63,140 bases of DNA, taken from Ectocarpus siliculosus. Lineage: Eukaryota; Sar; Phaeophyceae; Ectocarpales; Ectocarpaceae. Location: positions 573,170 to 636,309 of the forward strand of contig FN649748.1 in assembly GCA_000310025.1 (NCBI GenBank), in the 5' to 3' direction. Numbering within the stretch: the stretch's first letter is position 1; every line of letters begins with the position of its first letter. Positions 32,301 through 63,140 of this stretch are shown piece after piece. Under the pieces are notes generated by a model. That model saw only the letters and a program-made list of their open reading frames with translations, made no database searches and was not told where the DNA came from. The position numbers were made by a program, and so were the translations under genes.

Positions 32301-34804
32301 TCAGACTAGAACGGTCGGATTCAGTTCGATACATGTCTTTTCGAAACAGTTTTTGGACAACCGCCTTAGCAGCAGAGGCATATTCGCGTATTCACACTCT
32401 TGCGTTATTGAGGACTTCTCTGTCATTAACTTAGAACTCTAACGTGTGTGCGGCAACTGATATCCTGTTTCACGCCAGCACTGGCAACCTTTCAAAGGTG
32501 CTGACTCGGACAATTCCGTTATCTGCGCAGGTACTCGTCCATTTGATTGACTTGTCCGCTTGTGCGCGTCGGCCTTGGTGCTCTTGTTGCCGCCACAGCT
32601 GTTGTCTTTCGTGCTGATCGGCGTTCTGGTCCTCCTACAGACGAGAGGCTTTCTCGCCACAATCACTACCGTGTCAAGAGCTTCTGTTATCAGCGGGTGA
32701 GTTGCTCCTCTTCATGCCGATGTCCATCTCCATATCTCAATCTCCGCCTCTCTCCCTCGAACACCGGGCGTGGGGGGGCGGCGGGAGAAAATTTTCGCCC
32801 GAGGTGAAAATTAAAAAGACAAAACACCCCTCCCCCCTACCATCGGCGATTGGTCCTGTTGGAACAACGCTCTCTCCTCTCGAGGACGCGTGGTCAATGG
32901 TCTAACAGCTAAGGCTCACAAAACATGAGCACGCCCCCTCCTATGCCAGTGTATCAATCCTTCCCCCTAGTAGAGAAATTTCCCCTCCGGTGTTTGCCAT
33001 CGAGGTTTGGGTTTTCGTCGCTTGGCAACGACGTTGTAGAACAAGCCGTCGCCCCCGGTGTTTGCCATCGGGGTTGGGTTTTCGTCGCTTGGCAGCGATG
33101 TTGTAAAACAAGCCGATCACTTCGTAAGCTCGGCAACCAGGTTACCGCTTTTTTTTTGCCTTTGGGATTTCTTTTTGCGGTAACCATGAATGGTGGTCGA
33201 GTAGATTAGCGGGGTGGAGAAACCTCATTCCGCGCAAAGGGGATAATCGCACGTTGTGTTAAATTGGTCAAGCACCCTCGAGGCAGTTACACAGCGCTTA
33301 CAGCTGTCTCTGGAAGTGAAAGCACCAGAAAATAAAATAAGTCATACGCAGCTGTCATCTGTACGCAAGGAAGTAAGCACAAGATGCCGAACACCCTTAG
33401 CAGGATGCAGCGCACCCTTCATGCGACTCGCCGAATACCTCGCGGCGCTTCGCGCTTGGTGATGTGAGAGCCTGGTCCGGTGAGAACCCGGCGTGCTCCG
33501 TCCCGGCTTTGTAGGGATGCGAGGTCAATGGTCTAACGACTACGGCATGCACGACAATGAGTACCCTCCCCCCCCCCTCCCCCCCCTAGTAGAGAACCCT
33601 CTCGACAACATATATCTTTCCCCCTCGGCCCGTCGTTGCCGCCCTCCTCGTGGACCCTCTTTCCCATCTTCCCCGCCTGACCCGCGCGAGGACGACAGCT
33701 TCTCGATACCCGCGCAGGTGCTATCGTTGCTCTGGTCCATGCTGATGGGCACGTACTTCACCTCGAGCGTGATCTTGATGCGCGTGAACCTTCCCCCGAG
33801 GCACCGGGTCGCGATCACGGCTGTGCTTGGCGGGATGAGGTAGGTTGTTGCCCGAAACGTAGGCGAAACTAAGGTGTTTATAGAGCCGAAGGGCGACAGC
33901 TAGCAACCGCAGCGCGCTACGGGAGAAACCTGTTCTCGATGCTCTTAAAATTTACAACGACCGCGATCGACGGAGTTTATGGTTGTAGGTCCGCTGTTTT
34001 GGAGTCATCTGTATCGATCTCGTCTGGGCGCCTCGTGTGCCAGTTCCCGGTAGAGGCATGGGGGTATTGTCCTCGAGTGACATGGGACCGCCACCTGTAA
34101 GGCTGTGCTTGTCCGCGCGAAGCTCTCCGATTTTCGCGACGTGTTTGATCCGAGGGTTTCCACTGCGTTCAGGTTCCCGTCTTTCAACGTTACCTTTTGG
34201 TTCTCACGAGCGCTGAATCGGAATCGGGCGCAGCTACGACGGCATAGGTAGTGTGCCTACCTAACTGCTCGCCGCCGCTATTATGCCGCAATGTTGCAAT
34301 AACTCCTTCTTCCGTGGACACGCGTAACGGCACAGGTTCAGCTTCTACCAGCGGTGGTTCGACACCGTGTTCTTGATCTCCGGCTGCGTGACCGCCGTCA
34401 CGCTCCTGGCGTTCCACCTCGCCAACCGAAACAGCGACGCGGACCACCACGAAGAGGACCACAACGGTAACACCCACCACCAACCACCACCAACAGCAAC
34501 AGGAACTACAACAAGAGGTAGAGGACAGCAGGCAGAAAATGCGTACGGAGTAGGGGAAGGGGGCGGGGGGTTCGGTGTTGTTGCTGACCCGCGCGAAGGT
34601 GGCGGGCCGAGCAGCAGCGGTGGCGGGGGCTATTACTCGAAGGGCGGCGAACCGTCCGCGGTTCGGCCTAGAGGGAGAGGGGCAGTGGACTTGTCGGGCT
34701 GGGACTACAGAACGTCTTTTTCTTCAGCGGGCAGGGGTGGAGGCGGTGGGGTTTCCGGTGGCGAGAGGCAGGCGGGTGGTGGCCGAAGATCGAAGCAGTC
34801 CTAG
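21156..34804 (+). CDS. Golgi pH regulator / GTG-type multi-pass membrane protein, 12 exons, 678 aa
   Basis: Exons: 21156-21271, 21569-21722, 27588-27736, 27979-28120, 28630-28748, 29276-29585, 29939-30007, 30611-30669, 31727-31937, 32599-32696, 33699-33839 and 34336-34804. Every junction is GT-AG and phase-consistent. Family landmarks in order: FSLTFALSCCIFE + LIILEIAGWLNPAS (residues about 75-105), ARVGVVGVASLALLSGFGAV (about 192-211), a basic cytosolic stretch with RERRARLTLKD, SLEKIARDLFLEISD before the ABA-GPCR-type domain, LLSFVLIGVLVLLQTRGFLA (about 444-463), LMGTYFTSSVILMRVNLP, and FSFYQRWFDTVFLISG (about 524-539). Members act as anion channels that acidify the Golgi (GPHR) or were proposed as ABA-binding GTG proteins in plants. 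The usual length is about 455-470 aa. The extra length comes from a Ser/Gly-rich cytosolic loop and a Gly-rich tail of about 125 residues. Exon 9's acceptor (AAAAG|C) is weak. Confidence 0.93.
21931..22165 (+). repeat. Minisatellite, about 6 units of 36-43 bp, each able to form a hairpin
   Basis: The unit reads roughly TCGGTAAGGTATTGAAATCT, then TACCGAAGCGTACCGAGATTT. Within each unit CGGTAAG and CTTACCG are inverted, so single-stranded units can pair. Units diverge by a few bases and the last two lose one base of the stem. The array lies in intron 2 of the GPHR-like gene, directly before the transposase C-terminal half. A short duplication of GTATTTTGTGTTCTG follows (22168-22201). Confidence 0.85.
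22304..24306 (+). pseudogene. Degenerate hAT-like transposase, C-terminal half
   Basis: Three or more frames must be joined to read the protein. The order is a polyQ stretch (CAG run 22324-22348), IWALRIGCLLHVLHIAI with a C-x2-H pattern (hAT transposases have C-x2-H after the second-Asp region), PAETRWMVVWEEADLLDERW with the hAT-type R-W pair, LHAKFAVELGKKVLFW, FILEFERRL, FPELIEWAESN, FMLNFDESC...TERHQHL, and a C-terminal LVESLFSLYDKRSQQFD. Frameshifts lie near 22600-22620, in a T run at about 22787-22793, and near 23000-23045. Introns may exist around 23095-23430. The family assignment rests on motif order only. It lies in intron 2 of the GPHR-like gene. Confidence 0.55.
24977..26854 (-). 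pseudogene. Degenerate hAT-like transposase, N-terminal half
   Basis: Read on the minus strand from ATG 26854: MGKGSTGENKKAWTAKK, a long charged coiled-coil rich in Lys, Glu and Arg with a polyQ tract (CTG run 26283-26311), an intron at 26146-25883, and GLASARLVEKMIQAGTPLVQ. After frame changes follow HLDKAELIRVILAAPHLLIAGD, KKFPIFVAFWD, AQADLFYDTIVNVLGYPP, VMYVLSDNTASVSG (an Asp in the position of a DDE-type catalytic residue) and CVKLLQDMFNKDEAER, ending in an Arg/Gly repeat. In-frame stops lie at 26690-26692 and about 25385; frameshifts lie near 25490 and 25270. The reading stops where the copy at 22304-24306 begins in protein order, so the two are complementary halves. Confidence 0.55.
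32841..32936 (+). mobile_element. LINE-like 3' end remnant
   Basis: About 96 bp match the last codons and 3' tail of the LINE-like copies at 41.9 and 62.2 kb. The match includes CCATCGGCGATTGGTCCTG, the GGACGCGTGGTCAATGGTC segment, and an end in GAGCACGCCCC. It lies in intron 10 of the GPHR-like gene, just upstream of a SINE-like copy. Confidence 0.65.
32978..33582 (+). mobile_element. SINE-like repeat copy 1 with 14 bp target-site duplication
   Basis: The element begins with two tandem head units containing GGTGTTTGCCATCG...TTTTCGTCGCTTGGC, followed by a conserved body. It ends GGTCAATGGTCTAACGACTA...GAGTAC followed by a C-rich tail. The sequence CCCCTAGTAGAGAA occurs at 32964-32977 immediately before it and at 33583-33596 immediately after the tail, as expected of a target-site duplication from retroposition. 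It lies in intron 10 of the GPHR-like gene, and its downstream flank is followed by exon 11. Confidence 0.8.
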
Positions 34805-35971: not shown

Positions 35972-38900
35972 CTATTTGTGCGACGAAGACGACCCACTAA
36001 GGCTGTCGCCATTACCCCGGCGTGCATGTTCCTTTTCCCTCCTCAGCTTTTTGGCTTCGCCGACCATGAGAAAGTAGAACCGGTCGTAGTCTGTTGTAGC
36101 CAGTAGGATCTCGATGAAGAACCTGTGCATGTCAATTGATGTCCGGCTGATGATGGGTTGTTACGCGCGTCAGCAACAATGCGGGCTGCTGCAAACCAAA
36201 CCCACAAACGGAGAGTGATATATCAGGTTGTGAAAAGACCAGGCGAAATCACCCAGCAATTGGACTTCTTCGGGTAGTGCTATGTAAATAGTGCCCAATA
36301 TTGATAACTTAGAATGTAAGCAACGCTCAACCGCCCTGCATCCTGCATTGAGGTGCGTTTATATGTCGCACAAAACGGGGTGCAGTCAATCTCCTTTCTC
36401 TGCTCGATGTCCCCACGACGCCTAAAGAGCCGACGTCGCAAGCAGAAAAGAGGGTTTGGTGTGGAATGGACCCTGTGGACAGAGCTTTTCGTGATCATGT
36501 TGTTCAGCGTCAATTGCACGCTCTGCCATTGTTGAAGGAGTGAAGCTGGAAAATGACCCCATCTGTGCTTAAAACTAGGTGAAACGCCGCATTCTACCCG
36601 ACGACGTGATGATGGCTTAGCAATGCTGTCTCTACCACTCAGCCCGTTGTGGTGGTAACCAGTCCCGTACCAGGCCACGACTCGAGAAAAGACGAATCCC
36701 TTCATATTCGCTAGCATCACACAAGGCAACTAAGCGATGAAAAATCTACCAATCGCTGTTCCTGATAATAAGTATTAATAGTTGTTGTAGTTGTCGGTGT
36801 GATTCGCGCTTGGAACAGAGACCAACCTTCGAGGAGAGAACTCCTCGAGCGTTTGAAGAGCTTCCTCGCACTCCTGCTGGAACTGCTCCACTGTCCCCCC
36901 CGCCTCTTCCTCGATAAACCCTGCGACAGAATTTGCCATGTAGAATAAGCAGAGAAGTGTCAATGATAATCTCATGAAGGAAAACCTCCCCTTGTCCACA
37001 GGGTGGTTTGTCCACAAGAACCCACCAAAAAAGGTGTCGCTGGACCCCTTGGTCGTAGGCACACCCAAGAAACTGGAGCTCTCTCGAACATGCGACACCA
37101 AGAACCCCTCCCCCCCCCCTCCCCCCCGGGAAAATTGGACGAAAACAGAAAATCAGGGTCAGATTTTTTAGTATCTTTACTATTCCGTAGATAGGACCTG
37201 TGGAGGTTCCAGCTCCCGAACTCACACCCTTGCCATTTAAACGAATATAGTCTGCAAAAAGAGGCCGATAAACAAACGCCCCAGCAGCGTGTAGTATTCA
37301 AATCGATGGATAGGCATGCATACGATTCAGGTAATATGCACCATGGTATTGTTTTTCGCTTCTCATGGGACACTTCTTTGTACATCCGTTCGCTGTGGGT
37401 CCACGAAACGCATGTCCCATCTTGCCTCATCAATGGTAACCCTAAGAGAGAGGTGACAGGTTGGTGCCATAAGCAATGCTGATGCCACCGTTGCACATCA
37501 CCGAAGACTTCACCCTGCGAGTGCTTTCCGAAGAACAGTGCTACTGCGCCCGCTTGCGGTTCCGAATGCGCCAGTGATGACGAAGTTGCCTTACTCGTTA
37601 TGTGTCCCGGTTGGTGCCGTACACCTACAAATGTGTACACGTATGGAAGATAAAAACTAGTTGTCAAAACTTACCTGAAATCTTGTTTTCAAAGTGTCTC
37701 AAGAATAAGTTGTACACCTCCGTGAACTCGAGTTTGTGCTCCACCTCGCCTGGTGATGTCCACTGGCCCTCGTCCGCGGTGTCCAAGAACGGCTCGTGGT
37801 GCTTCCTAGATATCGTACGGTTGGTATGTTGAACACAACAGTCACGAAATCTTTTGTATGAATCCACCCAAAGATCAAGGAATTGAAAAGGCGGGAAACC
37901 GGTGCCGTTGTGACACATACAGGAAAATCAAACAGCCTCGCTAGTCACAAAATCATCGTGACAGGTCATCTGCCGACAATTCTTCCAGCAGACCTTCATG
38001 CAGGTGTCGATGATTGTTCCAATCTCCTAGGAGAGCCTTTCGAACCCGTTGTGTCTACCAGTATCTCGGAGTCTGCACCAATGGGGGGACTCTATTGTTG
38101 TGGGGACTACCGTAACGTACGTGTACTTCCATTCCTACCCCCCCCCCCCCCGGTGTTTGCCATCGGGGTTGGGTTTTCGTCGCTTGGCAACGACGTTGTA
38201 CAACAAGCCCCCCCTCAGTGTTTGCCATCGGGGTTGGGTTTTCGTCGCTTGGCAACGACGCTGTAAAACAAGCCAATTCACTTCGTGAACTCGGCAACCA
38301 GGTTACCGGGTTTTTTTTGCCTTTGGCTTTTTTCTTTGGCGGTAACCGCAATGGTGGTCGAGTAGATCATGTTGTGCGGGGTGGAGAACCCTCACTCCGC
38401 GCAAGGGGGATGATCGCACCACGTTGTGTTGAAATGGTCAAGCATCCTCGAGGCAGTTACTACACAGCAGTGCGTATAGCTGTCTCTGGAAGTGAAAGCA
38501 CCAGAAAATAGATTAAGTCATACGTAGCTGTCATCCGTACGAAAGGAAGTAAGCACAAGATGCCGAACACCCTTAGCAGGATGCAGCGCACCCTTCATGC
38601 GACTCGCTGAATACCTCACGGCGCTTCGCGCTTGGTGATGTGAGAACCTGGTCCGGTGAGAACCCGGCGTGCTCCGTCCCGGCTTTGTAGGGATGCGAGG
38701 TCAATGGTCGAACGACTACGGCATGCACGACTATGAGTACCCCCCCCCCCCCCCCCCCCCCCCCCNNNNNTCCTCGAAGTCTTCCTCTAGAAACTGGGAC
38801 ATGCAGAACTCCTGAACGAAAATTGTAGATGGTAGATTGGCACGGATTGTAGACCATCAATGGAACTTGGTTTCGCGATGTTAGTTGAAGCGAACGGAGC

Positions 38901-41825: not shown

Positions 41826-41929
41826 AGTGTACAACAAACATGACTCCTGTGTCCTGGTTGCCGTTTCCCCGCTACCGTGTCCTGCCTGCCGTTTCCCCAC
41901 TGTTTTGGCCTTCAGGAGGCTGGACGAGG

Positions 41930-42797
41930 GGGGGGGGGCGTACTCTTATGTTTTGCATGCCTTAGCGGTTAGACCATTGACCACGCGTCCTCAAGAGGAC
42001 GGAGCATTGTCCCCACAGGACCGATCACCGATGGCCAATCGTTCCTTCCTACTTTGCCAATGGTGATTCAAAACTGTCTTCCCGAGTCTGTCTATCCCAA
42101 TAACGATATCCCTTCCCGCCTTCTCAAACCATTTCCTACTCCCCAGTACAGCTACCGTCTTCTCCTCTCTATTCCATGCCTCAAGCATCTCCCTGTACCT
42201 CCCTTGTATTTTTCCCAGCTCAGTCATGTACACTTCCCTCTCCTTTTCGTACAACTGACACTCCGCGACTACATGAACACGGGCTTCGCATTCGAAGCCG
42301 CAATCATATTTGAACTTGTCGTCTGCGTCGTCTACCGCCCTATGTCTTCGTCGACGGTTCGAAGGCCTATGTCCCCGGTCATGAATTTGACCTTAAGCTT
42401 TGTCCCTGCATCCATTGGTCCATGTAGGTAATCCTTGAACCCTATTCCTTCTTTCAACATTCCGTACACTTCTAGACCTTCCTTATCCTCGGTTTCTTTC
42501 CTTAGATTCTGTTTTTCTCTATCATCGGCACAAGCAGCAGATATCTTCTCCTTGAAACCCTGTAGACCCTCCGTTTCCAGCGTTTCATCTTCGTCGAATT
42601 CGATTTCGAACCCCTTCCATACGTCCTCTACAACCTTGACCAATTCCGTGGGTTGTCTACCCCTCGTTTTGCTTGCCCACTTCGCCTCCCATACTATTCT
42701 CGGCAACCCCTCCTCTCCCATCCCGCACATGCGATACTGCCATGTCAGCTTCCTTGCGTCTCTTCCCAACCGTAGGGATTGGATCCCCAATTCAGGA
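41930..42797 (-). mobile_element. LINE-like retroelement fragment, 5'-truncated
   Basis: The minus strand encodes the C-terminal end of a non-LTR-type polyprotein: LTWQYRMCGMGEEGLPRIVW, VKVVEDVWKG, GIGFKDYLHGPMD, then after a frame break a Cys/His cluster CGFECEARVHVVAECQLYEK and LGSRKWFEKAGRD. The body closely follows the copy at 62240-63140. The 5' border is abrupt at about 42797. The 3' end is GGTCTAACCGCTAAGGCATG...AGAGTACGC followed by poly(C), seen as poly(G) on the plus strand at about 41930. 5' truncation plus a 3' homopolymer tail is typical of LINE insertions. Reverse transcriptase motifs are not included. Confidence 0.75.
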
Positions 42798-45557: not shown

Positions 45558-48500
45558 TCACCAGTCCTTGAAGGCATCTGCCTCTTCGGTCAATATAGGC
45601 TCGTCGAGGTTTCCCACACCAGCCCGCCTGACGCCTTCGATGGCGACGAAAACCACTGCCATCATGAGATCTGATCGATTTCGTTGGACGTGATGACGCC
45701 AAGCCGCCGCGGCAAGAGGGTTTGTAGTGAACATACAGGTGCGCGGACAATAAGAGGTGAGAAATGCAGTAGGAGGTAACGGGATAGCGGCACCGCGCTT
45801 TGGGTCGATATAGAGCTGGAGGGTTGCTGAAACTCCCGCGTCTCGTTTTTTATTCGTCGAACAAAATCAGGCATTTATCGACCCCATAAGCCCTTGTTTG
45901 TACTCGAGTGTCTGGCCCAAGTTGTTACACACAATGGCACGATGATGAGGACTGGCAAGAACTGATGAATCGACATTGGGGAAAGCAACTAGGGAGTCAG
46001 GAAATGATGCTAATCAACGCGTTCCGAAAGCCCCCCGCCCGCGGAGACAGGTTTTCTTCATCCCACCGTCCCAGCTTAAACATTATTCATGTCTACGTTG
46101 AAGCCCTAGGGCTCTATTCACGCAACATGGAGAAATCAGGCGGAGTGATTTCACCCTCCCCCAAAGGGACGAGCGACTAGAGTTTGGTAACGTGCTAGTG
46201 AACGCGGGATTTTTTCGTCTTTACCGTGTTGAAGTTGGTTCTTTACATACCGTACAGCGTCGATACGTCTACCGCACGCCCGTACGGTCTAAAACCAGGT
46301 AGCTTGACCGTTTTCCTACAATGAACGTGCCACGTATTTCTTATTGTTCCTCACATGCGGTCATGTAATGCCACTGGTCTGCGTGGTCCCAGCAGCTGGC
46401 CGTGGTCACCACTTCGAGATCGTCGGTCTGAGCAACAAAAACCGAGGGCGGCGAGGGGGGGGGGGGGTTGTCTTCGACCATTCTGTGAAGGATGCATCAG
46501 TGGCAAGCTCGTGTGTTTCCGTCAAGCGCGTCTGCTATTTACCACGGCCGTGCTGCTGCTTTGTCAGCAAAACAAGGGAATATACGTTTTTCTTAACGTA
46601 GCACATACAATAGCAAAGTTGAGTTGTTCACCACCCGAAGGGAGCGCGCGGGTTAAGTGCGAGCAAGAAGCATCCACGTTGATGTCCACTTTCGACAAGA
46701 AAACACACGTTTCTCCTAGGGTACGTACACACTTGTGGTGGTGTCGACGATGTGGGGAAGACCGATCGACACTCACAATGACGAATACTCTTACAATAAC
46801 ACCAACATACATGCTCTCGGAGGGTGTGTTGACCCTTGACCATGATCGTAAGCCCAACCCCACGTTTTACAGACCTTGACACAGACCGTAAATCGTCGGA
46901 GTGCAATTGAAACACCCATCATCGATCAAACTACACAGTTCACCGGGCTACTCTAAAACAAAAAAAGTGCGGGGTTAGGAAGTGTGCGACTCACCACGGG
47001 GGTACACAGATCACCCACGGTAGAGGTGAAATCGTCGAATCCAGCCACCTGAACGTGAAGAGAAAATGACGGAGCGCAAGATGGAGGGGAGAGCGGGGAG
47101 GGCAGTCGTTTGATTTTTTCCTTGCTTGTTCGTCTTTGGACCATGTTGGTCGCGAGCGTGAACGCGTGATCGTCATCGTCAGTTGGCAGCATCGCTCTCC
47201 TGTCACTCTGTCTCTGTTTCTGTTTGTCTGTTCGACTGACGGCCAGCCTCTCTCTCTCTCCGTCTCAATCTCTCTCTCTCTCTCTCTCTCTCTCTGCGTT
47301 GATCTCTGTTGCTGCTCTGTCTTCGAGAGCAGTCTCTCTGTCTCTCTGTGCCTGTCTGCTTGTGTCTCAGAGCCTAGATCCTTCTCCTGGTTTCCGTACA
47401 ACGCCAGGACAGAGATCCCCGGAAGGGGCTTCGCCGACGACTGAGGGGGGGGGGGGTGTACTCATTGTCGTGCATGCCGTAGTCGTTAGACCATTGACTT
47501 CGCATCCCTACAAAGCCGGGACGGAGCAAGCCGGGTTCTCACCGGACCAGGCTCTCACATCACCAAGCGCGAAGCGCCGTGAGGTATTCGGCGAGTCGCA
47601 TGAAGGGTGCGCTGCATCCTGCTAAGGGTGTTCAGCATCTTGTGCTTACTTCCTTGCGTCCGGATGACAGCTGCGTATGACTTAATTTATTTTCCGGTGC
47701 TTTCACTTCCAGAGACAGTTGGAAGCACTGTGTAACTGCCTCGAGGATGCTTGACCATTTTTAACACAACGTGGTGCGATCATCCCCCTTGCGCGGAGTG
47801 AGGGTTCTCCACCCCGCACAACATGATCTACTCGACCACCATTGCGGTTACCGCCAAAAAACAGAGGAAAAAAAAAAAAACGGTAACCTGGTTGCCGAGT
47901 TCACGAAGTGAATTGGCTTTTATTACAACGTCGTTGCCAAGCGACGAAAACCCAATCCCGATGGCAAACACCGAGGGGGGGGGGGGGGTACACCAACCCT
48001 CACAAGCCAACCTATCGCATCCCGTGGGGCGGTTCGGAAACAAGTCGTAGACCATCACATGTGACGGTGGTCGTGAAGCTCATTCAATTGTTGGTGGTGG
48101 CAGGCGCCAACCTTCTTGCGAATCATGATTTTGCCATGACTGTGCCGGCTTCCGGGTTAAAGGTGTGCTGGCTTGTATCTTGGCACGGAAATCACGGACG
48201 CTCGTTTCAGTACAACGTGGATGGAGGACAACGAACTACGTTGAGGGGAGAGTGGCCATCCTATTGCCGGTACAAGAAGAGTAACAACATGTTCGTGAGC
48301 GATGTTCTACATAGGCCGCGGGGCTCACCGGCACATGAATGATGCCGACTGCTGTGAAGCAGGCCGAAATGACCGCCCAGACCGACGCCTGCCACCACTT
48401 GCGGTCGATGATGTGTACGAGCATGGCAACCCAGCAGAGAGACACCAGAATAGCCCCACGCTTGAGACCGAGGATGCCCCTGCGATTAGTTCAGGCAAAG

Positions 48501-60596: not shown

Positions 60597-61686
60597 CACG
60601 TGTGCGACAGGGAACGGCCCGACCGAGAGGAACCATGTTGATGTTCAACCTGCCTAGTGCATACAATGTTTGCTCAAGTAGAACAACCTCTGCAGGCTGC
60701 TCTATCTATGACTTGTATAGTAGTTTACGTTCGTATCCAAAAGAGCAGGATTGAATTGTCTCACAGATACATGCATGTCGGGATGCCGGCTCGTCTACTT
60801 CAGCTATTTCTATTGTCCGCTGTTTATTTGCACTCACCGCCATCGCTGCTCCAGAGCAGACAGCACAGCTGCTTGCAAGGGGTCTGAGATCTTGGGTAGG
60901 AGGACGATTAGCCATGGAAAGCTATTTCTCTCGCTGCTGCTTTGCAGCACTTCGTTTCTGCCCTCTGCGGAGACGTCATGACGTCATGACGCGGAACTTT
61001 TTCAGCGAGACTGTCAGAAAATATCCAATCGGGTGTTCCAGCATCCAACGCCCAGTGCAGCATAGTCTTCCCACTTCCCACTACCGGGGGCGCGCAGTTT
61101 TCAATCTTGACGTTTGGCAAGGAGTATGCCTCGGAAGAGAGAGAGTGTGTGACGTAAGAGAAAGAGAGAATTGTACGGAAGAGAGAGGGTAGTAGGAGGC
61201 AGGGAAGCCAGAAGACCTCCCACGTTCCCAACTCCGCAGGTGGCTTTCGAAGGGTGGTATCCATATTATGGGGTTTCCGCTTAGATCGTGTCGTATCTTT
61301 CCTACAGTTGGATGCATATATGTGCATCAACGGCTACAAGTAGATATTAAATAACCTTACCTGCATCCGTAGGATCGGGAAGTCCTTTTCTATGCCCGTC
61401 CCCTCGCAAAGGGTATTAACAGGACGACAGATTGATTGCCATACATAGCTGTTTCGTCGAACAGGAAAAACTGCTGTGGGGCGAAAAAAGAAAACTGCTG
61501 TTTGCTTCGCCCCTCCGTGACACTCACACCCAAACACTACAGGATGTACCAATGAAGCTGAAGTTGCTGACGGCGCTTGAAGTCATGAAAGACAGGCGAT
61601 ACGATTCCTACTTCGCTGCTCGGGCCGCCGGGGGTGGCTCAATAATTTCGCATGTACACGTACCTGCGCAGAAGTTGATGACTAGT
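60597..61686. other. Upstream region of the permease gene
   Basis: No gene is recognised. A palindromic direct repeat GACGTCATGACGTCATGACG at about 60971-60990 resembles CRE-type bZIP sites. A minus-strand frame at about 61090-60985 contains an ankyrin-like phrase (GKTMLHWALDAGTPDW) that may be an exon of an unseen gene. Confidence 0.35.
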
Positions 61687-62222
61687 GGGGGGGTGGGGGT
61701 ACTCATAGTCGTGCATGCCGTGGTCGTTAGACCATTGACCTCGCATCCCTACAAAGCCGGGACGGAGCACGCCGGTTTCTCACCGGACCAGGCTCTCACA
61801 TCACCAAGCGCGAAGGGCCGTGAGGTATTCGGCGAGTCGCATGAAGGGTGCGCTGCATCCTGCTAAGGGTGTTCGGCATCTTGTGCTTACTTCCTTGCGT
61901 CCGGATGACAGCTGCGGATGACTTAATTTATTTTCTGGTGCTTTCACGTCCAGAGACAGTTGTAAGCGCTGTGTAACTGCCTCGAGGATGCTTGACCATT
62001 TTAACACAACGTGGTGCGATCATTCCCTTTGCGCGGATTGACGGTTCTCGACCCCGCACACCATTAATCTACTCGACCACCATTCATTCATGGTTACCGC
62101 GGAAAAAACAAACCTAAAGGCAAAAAAGCGGTAATAACGTGGTTGCTGAGCTCATGAAGTGATTGGCTTGTTGTACAACATCGCTGCCAAGCAACAAAAA
62201 CCCCGATGGCAAACACCGAGGG
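61687..62222 (-). mobile_element. SINE-like repeat copy 4
   Basis: It is reversed: a G-rich tail, then GTACTCATAGTCGTGCATGC at about 61699, a conserved body, and a single head unit ending near 62218 (AACACCGAGG). Its 5' end abuts the poly(C) tail of the LINE-like copy at 62240 (minus-strand reading), so the two insertions are arranged head to tail. Confidence 0.8.
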
Positions 62223-62239
62223 GTGGGATGACTCGGGGC

Positions 62240-63140
62240 GGGGGGGGGAGGGGGGGGGGGGCGTACTCTTATGTTTTGCATGTCTTAGCGGTTAGACCGT
62301 TGACCACGCGTCCTCGAGAGGACGGAGCATTGTTCCCACAGGACCGATCACCGATGGCCAATCGTTCCTTCCTACTTTGCCAAAGGTGGCTCAAAAATGT
62401 CTTCCCTAGTCTGTCTATCCTAACGATATCCCTTCCCGCCTTTTCAAACCACTTCCTACTCCCCAGTACAGCTACCGTCCTCTCCTCTCTATTCCATGCC
62501 TCAAACATCTCCCTGTACCTCCCTTCTATTTTTCCCAGCTCGGTCATGTACACTTCCCTCTCCGTATTGTTCAGCCGATATTGCGCGACTACATGAACAC
62601 GGTCTTCGATTTCGAAGCCGCAATCACATTTGAACTTGTCGTCTTCGTCGTCTACCGTCCTATGTCTTCCTCGACGTTCTCGAAGGCCAATGTCCCCGGT
62701 CCTGAATTTGACCTGAAGCTTTGTCCCTTCATCCATTGGTCCATGTAGGTAATCCTTGAACCCTATTCCTTCTTTCAACATGCCGTACACTTCTAGACTC
62801 TCCTTATCCTTGGTTTCTTTCCTTAGATTCTGTTCTTCTCTATCGGCACAAGCAACAAATATCTTCTCCTTGAACCCCTGTAGACCCTCCGTTTCCAGCG
62901 TTTCAACTTCGTCGATGTCTAACCCCTTCCATACGTCCTCTACAACCTTGACCCATTCCGTGGGTTGTCTACCCCTGTTTTTATTTGCCCAATTCGCCTC
63001 CCATACTATTCTCGGCAACCCCTCCTCTCCCATCCCGCACATGCGATACTGCCATGTCAGCTTCCTTGCGTCTCTTCCCGACCGTAGGGATTGGATCCCC
63101 AATTCTTCCCTTACGGCTGCATTACTTGTGCGCTTGGAGC
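62240..63140 (-). mobile_element. LINE-like retroelement, C-terminal part, runs off the window end
   Basis: The minus-strand frame is open from the window edge (63140) to a stop at 62269-62271. It reads TSNAAVREELGIQSLRSGRD, LTWQYRMCGMGEEGLPRIVW, GIGFKDYLHGPMDEG, FKCDCGFEIEDRVHVVAQY (a Cys/His cluster) and LGSRKWFEKAGRDIVRIDRL. The AAVREELGIQSLRSGRDARKL segment resembles the region after the reverse transcriptase in non-LTR elements. It is intact over about 290 codons, unlike the 41.9 kb copy, so it is younger or better preserved. The 3' end runs into a poly(C) tail (poly(G) on plus at about 62240-62261). Confidence 0.75.

What the first reader, a model, noticed from the sequence alone, without database searches (positions are those of the whole stretch)
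61687..63140. A LINE/SINE pair that shares a ~45 bp 3' end and uses poly(C) tails
The LINE-like fragments (41.9 and 62.2 kb) end GCGTGGTCAATGGTCTAAC, two variable bases, CTAAGGCATGCA... AGAGTACGC then poly(C). The four short repeats end GCGAGGTCAATGGTCTAAC, GACTACGGCATGCA... GAGTAC then poly(C). The similarity starts only near the 3' end. A SINE that borrows the 3' end of a LINE to be copied by its reverse transcriptase is known from stringent-type LINE/SINE pairs, but the homopolymer tail is normally A or a short repeat. A C tail would be unusual and would also explain the frequent C/G runs and the assembly gap. The pairing is inference from the shared end.
Basis: partly seen in the sequence, partly recalled or inferred. 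Interest (0 to 1): 0.78.

Follow-up and report, generated by a model that had tools for sequence, protein, structure and literature searches.

The report
Seaweed retroelements that target C-runs
In this brown-alga genome a long copying element and a short hitch-hiker share the same 3' end and both sit at runs of C; the pair itself appears to be already published, but the runs of C look like the chosen landing sites as well as tails, which I did not find described.

Summary
Four ~0.5-0.6 kb repeats and three LINE pieces in the window end in a shared sequence followed by C. The genome is a brown alga (150 EsV-1-7 matches scored; 0 of 14 controls). The LINE has a full-length form: 4,244 bp, one 1,340-codon ORF with endonuclease and reverse transcriptase, stop codon 7 nt before the C-run. 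The short repeat matches it only at the 3' end (~110 nt; high-identity core 51 nt). A second LINE family ends likewise. In a tail-blind sample, 17 of 17 readable short repeats and 17 of 17 readable LINE ends (20 fetched of each) carry the shared end plus C-run.

The pair seems already published: RTEX-N1_Ec32 with RTEX-1/2 of Ectocarpus (PMC12477816). The parts I saw mention no poly(C) tail or target.

New here: the C-run is also the target. Detectable target-site duplications begin with C that survives upstream of the element, where no tail can reach. C6 or more lies within 45 nt upstream of 13 of 17 LINE-A copies (background 1.8%). Elements also stack through each other's C-runs: 7 of 34 on the same strand, 0 on the other. 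Best reading: target-primed reverse transcription at oligo(dC)·(dG) tracts, an RNA C-tail pairing with a G-ended primer.

The parts
61699..62218 (-). Short repeat (RTEX-N1-like, SINE-like), one 5' unit, ends GAGTAC
61687..61698 (-). C-run at 3' junction of the 61.7 short repeat (CCCCACCCCCCC on the - strand)
61677..61685 (-). 3' copy of a diverged target-site duplication (CTAGTCATC on the - strand)
   Evidence: by eye; not called by the automatic test
62227..62238 (-). 5' copy of that duplication (CCCCGAGTCATC on the - strand), lying directly after the LINE's C-run
   Evidence: by eye; not called by the automatic test
62262..63140 (-). LINE-A piece: C-terminal coding region and shared 3' end ...GAGTACG; continues beyond the window
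62240..62261 (-). C-run downstream of the LINE-A piece (C12 T C9)
41939..42793 (-). LINE-A piece, 5'-truncated; GCCTCCTGAA occurs at both ends (its last letters may belong to the LINE), read by eye as an imperfect duplication and not called by the automatic test
41928..41938 (-). C11 run at its 3' junction; the 5' flank has only CCC at the matching place
47457..47974 (-). Short repeat, C-runs at both ends (47445-47456 and 47975-47988)
38152..38740 (+). Short repeat with two 5' units; C14 upstream, C-run then a 5-N gap downstream
32988..33564 (+). Short repeat with two 5' units
32963..32977 (+). 5' copy of target-site duplication CCCCCTAGTAGAGAA
33582..33596 (+). 3' copy of target-site duplication CCCCCTAGTAGAGAA
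32840..32936 (+). Short, older LINE-A 3' piece ending GAGCACGCCCCCTCC, upstream of the 33.0 short repeat

Best explanation
A brown-alga APE-type LINE (LINE-A, 4.2 kb, single ORF; probably the published RTE-X type), a second LINE (LINE-B) and a ~0.5-0.65 kb non-autonomous SINE-like repeat share a ~110-nt 3' end with a conserved hairpin, followed by oligo(C). Shown: the anatomy, the shared end, the C-run at all readable 3' junctions of a tail-blind sample, and duplications that begin with C already present in the target. Inferred: the LINE protein binds the shared end, its endonuclease opens the G strand of a C·G tract, and the G-ended 3'-OH pairs with the C tail of LINE or SINE RNA and primes reverse transcription. 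Because each insertion leaves a fresh C-run, the elements supply new targets and stack in the same orientation.
For: Full-length LINE-A in L063, with the same 5' start in L061 (2 of 2 that reach it): Pfam Exo_endo_phos E 7e-11 and RVT_1 E 1e-32; PDB best hits are human L1 ORF2p, E ~3e-28. Shared end confined to the 3' part. Hairpin: alifold -9.8 against null -3.1 (sd 2.0), 0 of 100 column shuffles as good. C-run at 17/17 and 17/17 readable tail-blind ends (L094 read). Duplication word (7 nt after the 3' C-run) found in the 5' flank of 15 of 71 usable copies; null mean 0.42, max 4 in 300 shuffles. In 13 of these 15 the 5' copy is directly preceded by at least 3 C, in 10 by at least 5; one of the 15 (L031) is a repeat artefact. 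C6 or more in the last 45 nt of the 5' flank: LINE-A 13/17, SINE 33/37 and 14/16, LINE-B 2/2, window 2/4, background 422 of 23,248 windows. Stacking: 7 of 34 same strand, 0 of 34 opposite.
Against: 56 of 71 usable copies show no duplication by the strict word test. No empty site was found: 8 joined sites gave only their own 16 halves and 4 weak hits to one flank. The short repeat also begins with a C-rich leader, so C-runs upstream of it are partly its own; only LINE copies are clean. Of the 13 LINE-A flanks with C6+, 4 (L025, L031, L035, L039) are C-runs of older family members, so 9 are unrelated targets; 4 of 17 flanks have none (L023, L024, L028, L063), and the 5' ends of some copies are only approximate. 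In 2 of 14 duplications the 3' run is shorter than the target run and in 4 equal, so an RNA-borne tail is not needed in every case. The window LINE at 41.9 has only CCC in its target. No RNA, protein or transposition data.
Confidence: 0.75

Rival explanations
1. The C-run is purely an element-borne tail, like poly(A) of other LINEs, and target choice is otherwise unspecific; C-runs upstream are the SINE's own 5' leader or older tails.
For: 3' runs are longer than the run in the 5' copy in 8 of 14 duplications (L002 19 v 9, L016 14 v 5, L077 19 v 3); window LINE 41.9 has C11 against CCC. Short repeats carry C-rich filler between duplication and 5' end. 4 of the 13 C6+ LINE-A flanks are older family tails or units.
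Against: 5'-truncated LINE copies, which have no 5' leader, directly abut duplications that begin with C8-C16 (L027, L032, L040); 9 of 17 LINE-A flanks have C6 or more outside any older family copy, against 1.8% background.
Confidence: 0.13
2. The endonuclease itself is specific for C·G tracts and the element RNA carries no C tail; all C's at the 3' junction are target-derived and vary by slippage.
For: 3' runs are equal to or shorter than the target run in 6 of 14 duplications.
Against: 3' runs are longer in 8 of 14, up to 19 against 3.
Confidence: 0.2
3. The C-runs are homopolymer expansions that arose after insertion, or assembly artefacts.
For: C/G runs of 9 or more are common here (21 in the window, 0.5 expected from base composition), and gaps sometimes follow them (5 of 40 copies have N within 60 nt).
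Against: Does not explain C-runs preceding the duplicated word in the 5' copy, nor same-strand stacking 7:0.
Confidence: 0.04

Closest known systems
RTEX-N1_Ec32 with autonomous RTEX-1/RTEX-2_Ec32 (Ectocarpus sp. 7; PMC12477816: section 5 part 1 and search passages read)
   Same: ~600 bp, the most abundant family, 3' end conserved with autonomous RTE-X LINEs, 5' origin unknown; two autonomous partners, as here
   Different: A whole-word search gave 0 for 'poly'; the passages returned for 'tail' and 'microsatellite' concern Harbinger genes and repeat masking, and the TSD passage seen concerns Harbinger. Section 5 part 2 was not read and Fig. 1C 'terminal motifs' was not visible, so a C tail may be drawn there.
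Stringent-type LINE/SINE pairs (eel UnaL2 type; PMC3747384 passages, PMC4176376 abstract read)
   Same: SINE-like repeat carries the LINE's 3' end with a hairpin, then a simple tail
   Different: Tails named in the passages seen are poly(A), (TTG)n, (TTGATG)n, poly(T), TAA, TGTAA; here oligo(C). The shared end lies largely inside the LINE ORF here.
Microsatellite-targeting LINEs such as Togen for (TG)n (PMC4640811 passages read)
   Same: Insertion into a simple sequence
   Different: Togen is placed near NeSL, a clade listed there among those with a restriction-like endonuclease; here the endonuclease is of Exo_endo_phos (APE) type and the target is a C homopolymer that matches the tail.

Membership tests
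Stringent-type LINE/SINE pair | SINE and LINE share a 3' end, with similarity starting abruptly | tested here: met
   local alignment 406-518 of 519, score 41 v shuffle max 20; upstream-only score 9.5 on the shorter remainder; single blast match besides a chance 12-mer
Stringent-type LINE/SINE pair | conserved stem-loop in the shared end | tested here: met
   6-bp stem in three families, one pair changed on both sides, one pair broken in 2 of 12 rows; alifold 0 of 100 shuffles as good. Only three independent families, aligned by hand, so modest support
Stringent-type LINE/SINE pair | autonomous partner with EN and RT ending in the same sequence | tested here: met
   L063 ORF 1,340 codons
Stringent-type LINE/SINE pair | LINE protein mobilises the SINE in trans through the shared end | not testable with these tools
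   needs a retrotransposition assay
SINE (strict: Pol III transcribed) | tRNA, 5S or 7SL head | tested here: not met
   ARAGORN 0 genes in the 4 loci scanned; Rfam no match at E<=1 in window 61600-63140
SINE (strict: Pol III transcribed) | A and B boxes | tested here: inconclusive
   one A-box match, B box only with 2 mismatches 24 nt away; box consensus recalled
RTE-X clade LINE | single ORF with APE endonuclease and RT | tested here: met
   not exclusive to RTE-X (clade trait recalled)
RTE-X clade LINE | RT phylogeny places it in RTE-X | not tested
   no reference RT set in these tools; name rests on the match of description with PMC12477816
Simple-sequence-targeting LINE | most insertions lie in the same simple sequence | tested here: met
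   13 of 17 LINE-A 5' flanks with C6+ (9 outside older family copies) v 1.8% background; 10 of 15 duplications preceded by C5+
LTR or TIR element | long terminal or inverted repeats bounding the element | tested here: inconclusive
   copies show variable 5' truncation and C-run 3' ends, unlike LTR or TIR elements; no dedicated search for terminal repeats was made

The most novel reading that the evidence does not exclude
A LINE/SINE system whose tail and target are the same homopolymer: an RNA C-tail pairs with a G-ended primer in oligo(dC)·(dG) tracts, and each insertion leaves a new C-run, so two LINE families and their SINE breed and share landing sites and stack in one orientation. This would be a self-renewing homopolymer-targeted retroelement community.
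Probability: 0.55. Interest if true: 0.66.

Novelty: new variant of a known kind. Interest (0 to 1): 0.52.

Why it matters
In the passages read, tails of known LINEs and SINEs are A, T or short repeats. A C tail that matches a C target gives a simple, testable rule for target choice in target-primed reverse transcription: base pairing between tail and primer. It could also explain why this alga's most abundant repeats pile up, why they sit next to C homopolymers, and why some assembly gaps fall there. The abundance of the partner (the paper: more than 6,000 copies) gives strong statistics without an experiment.

Tried and rejected
Rfam and tRNA search for a Pol III origin: nothing. Pfam on the window fragments alone: only a sub-threshold match, because those pieces hold only the C-terminal region. 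First idea that LINE-A copies share a fixed 5' boundary: wrong; it was the truncation of the query copy. Looking upstream of L026 and L028 for a full-length LINE: neither gave one; the full-length copy came from the list. A first duplication score that down-weighted C was weak: 99% of 600 mismatched pairs lay below 8.25 and only 8 of 57 copies above it; of these 8, L031 and L014 are not simple duplications and the L009 word is not next to a C-run. It also mis-anchored L038. It was replaced by the word test. Empty-site search for 8 joined sites: none found; only their own 16 halves and 4 weak hits to one flank. MAFFT alignment of 3' ends misplaced the SINE hairpin; a hand alignment was used. 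Paper searches for a poly(C) tail or C-tract target: none of the titles and abstract beginnings listed was about one; apart from the four papers named in this report, full texts were not opened.

Full report
What was checked. The window (63,140 bases; G000:C23:573170-636309 of a 189.5-Mb, 492-contig genome) contains the shared motif 7 times with up to 3 mismatches against 0.40 expected. A search of G000 with the EsV-1-7 family, which PMC12477816 says has proliferated in brown algae (passage), scored 150 matches of 880 candidates, with none in 14 control genomes.

The families. The first look of the searches lists 2,472 candidates for the short repeat and 2,240 for the LINE 3' end, 40 scored in each case. 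Copies extending upstream led to LINE-A: L063 holds a 4,244-bp element with one uninterrupted ORF, 1,340 codons from its first ATG. Its 5' start is the same in L061 (2 of 2 copies that reach it). The ORF (1,339 residues scanned) matches Exo_endo_phos (E 7e-11) and RVT_1 (E 1e-32), and human L1 ORF2p in the PDB (E ~3e-28). The stop codon lies 7 nt before the C-run. A second LINE family, LINE-B, was found through a short piece in the flank of L042. Its ORF ends 5 nt before the C-run, and its last residues resemble those of LINE-A (GRVVNG in both). The short repeat begins with one to four ~65-nt units separated by C-runs (among 40 copies: 12 with one, 13 with two, 15 with three; four in L080 and L092).

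The shared end. The short repeat aligns to LINE-A over its last ~112 nt (406-518 of 519; score 41, 100 shuffles mean 12.8, max 20) and to LINE-B over its last ~109 nt (score 37.5, shuffle max 17.5). For the remainder upstream the best local scores (9.5 and 10.5) are below the shuffle means, though on shorter sequences. Against the whole of LINE-A the only blast match, apart from one chance 12-mer, is the terminal 51 nt at 82%. So the similarity is confined to the 3' end, but is longer than the 45 bp first reported. A 6-bp hairpin (CGUCCU/AGGACG in LINE-A, CGUCUC/GGGACG in LINE-B, CGUCCC/GGGAUG in the short repeat) is kept across the three families, one pair changing on both sides; one pair is broken in 2 of 12 rows. 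RNAalifold gives -9.8 against -3.1 (sd 2.0) for column shuffles, 0 of 100 as good. The alignment was made by hand and holds only three independent families, so this is modest support.

The C-run at the 3' junction. In the first sample of 40 short repeats the queries contained the shared end, so it was biased; 38 of 40 pass a simple pattern for the run, and the two others are L045 (runs into N) and L051 (a few extra letters before its run). I therefore searched with the middle of the short repeat only and with the reverse-transcriptase region only, and fetched 20 copies of each that I had not fetched before. Of the short repeats, 17 of 20 were readable to the end (3 run into N; L076, missed by the pattern, was read by eye) and all 17 carry the shared end and a C-run. 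Of the LINEs, 17 of 20 were readable (L099, L107 and L110 run into N; L094, missed by the pattern, was read) and all 17 carry it.

The C-run as target. If C were only a tail, the 5' copy of the target-site duplication would not start with C. I took the word that follows the 3' C-run and looked for it in the last 60 nt of the 5' flank. The set had 79 records: 39 and 17 short repeats, 17 LINE-A, 2 LINE-B (of 8 LINE-B loci; two have N flanks, the others were given no 5' end) and 4 window copies; L001 was dropped because it is the window copy at 61.7. With 7-letter words, 15 of 71 usable records have it, against a mean of 0.42 and a maximum of 4 in 300 shuffled pairings. One of the 15 (L031) is a repeat artefact. 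In 13 of the 15 the word in the 5' copy is directly preceded by at least 3 C, in 10 by at least 5 (L031 is in both counts). The clearest are 5'-truncated LINE-A copies, which have no leader of their own: L027 (C9 GCTGCTT), L032 (C8 GCCTGCTT), L040 (C16 ACGGCTT). In the window itself the 33.0 short repeat is bounded by CCCCCTAGTAGAGAA on both sides. The other 56 of 71 records show no duplication by this strict test.

Independently, C6 or more lies in the last 45 nt of the 5' flank of 13 of 17 LINE-A, 2 of 2 LINE-B, 33 of 37 and 14 of 16 short repeats (flanks with N left out), and 2 of 4 window copies, against 422 of 23,248 background windows (1.8%). Of the 13 LINE-A flanks, 4 (L025, L031, L035, L039) are C-runs of older family members, so 9 are unrelated targets; L023, L024, L028 and L063 have none. 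For short repeats the figure is inflated by their own C-rich leader.

Tail or target? In the 14 duplications the run at the 3' junction is longer than in the 5' copy in 8, equal in 4 and shorter in 2 (for L007 the 5' run was read; in L053 and L076 the counted run is the inner CCC of an interrupted tract). The window LINE at 41.9 has C11 at its 3' junction and only CCC in the 5' flank. So most likely both are true: the RNA brings some C and the target has some. Pairing of the RNA's C with a G-ended primer is the simplest mechanism that uses both; it is inferred.

Stacking. Because each element leaves a C-run, later copies should land there in the same orientation. Of the 34 tail-blind 3' ends, 7 are followed within 60 nt by another member of these families on the same strand and 0 by one on the opposite strand (7 of the 34 have N within 90 nt). 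In the window, the 61.7 short repeat follows the 62.2 LINE's C-run directly.

What is known. PMC12477816 (section 5 part 1 read; word searches) describes RTEX-N1_Ec32: ~600 bp, more than 6,000 copies, 3' end conserved with autonomous RTEX-1 and RTEX-2, 5' origin unknown, possibly a SINE. This fits the pair here in what I could compare, so I take the pair as not new. A whole-word search gave 0 for 'poly'; supplementary files and figures were not available, and Fig. 1C shows 'terminal motifs' that I could not see. PMC3747384 (passages) names tails of poly(A), (TTG)n, (TTGATG)n, poly(T), TAA and TGTAA. PMC4176376 (abstract) shows that a LINE protein binds its cognate 3' stem-loop. PMC4640811 (passages) names (TG)n-specific Togen LINEs. 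Searches for a poly(C) tail or C-tract target listed no paper whose title or abstract beginning was about one.

Limits. No empty site was found within this one genome (8 sites joined, only their own 16 halves and 4 weak hits to one flank). Counts of copies are lower bounds. No other repeat family was used as a control for C-run flanks. Placement in RTE-X was not tested by phylogeny. Function was not tested.

Noticed in passing
L063:5090-5107; 3' ends in L070 and L071: In both LINE families the ORF's stop codon lies 7 nt (LINE-A) or 5 nt (LINE-B) before the C-run, so the shared 3' end is almost wholly inside coding sequence; there is practically no 3' UTR.
   Followed up: partly
window:32988-33117, 38152-38272; L080, L092: The short repeat starts with 1-4 head-to-tail units of ~65 nt separated by C-runs, as if reverse transcription or template jumping had multiplied its 5' end at C-runs.
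   Followed up: partly
window, 21 positions: C or G runs of 9 or more: 21 in the window against 0.5 expected from base composition; 8 lie at these elements, 13 are free (possible unused targets or remnants).
   Followed up: partly
window:38766-38770; L005, L018, L044, L045, L050, L061, L062, L064, L072: Assembly gaps often follow the C-run or fall inside the elements (5 of 40 short repeats have N within 60 nt after the shared end).
   Followed up: no
L007 and L014 5' flanks: Larger local duplications next to the insertion: in L014 a 48-nt stretch recurs on both sides; in L007 a 22-nt stretch occurs twice in the 5' flank.
   Followed up: no
window:8316-9072 and 2103-2488: Two other inverted-repeat pairs (234-nt arms 93%, 185-nt arms 89%), not studied here.
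   Followed up: no
window:21949-22169: Repeats spaced 41 nt and more (GGTAAGGTATTGAAATCTTACCGAAGCGTACC...).
   Followed up: no
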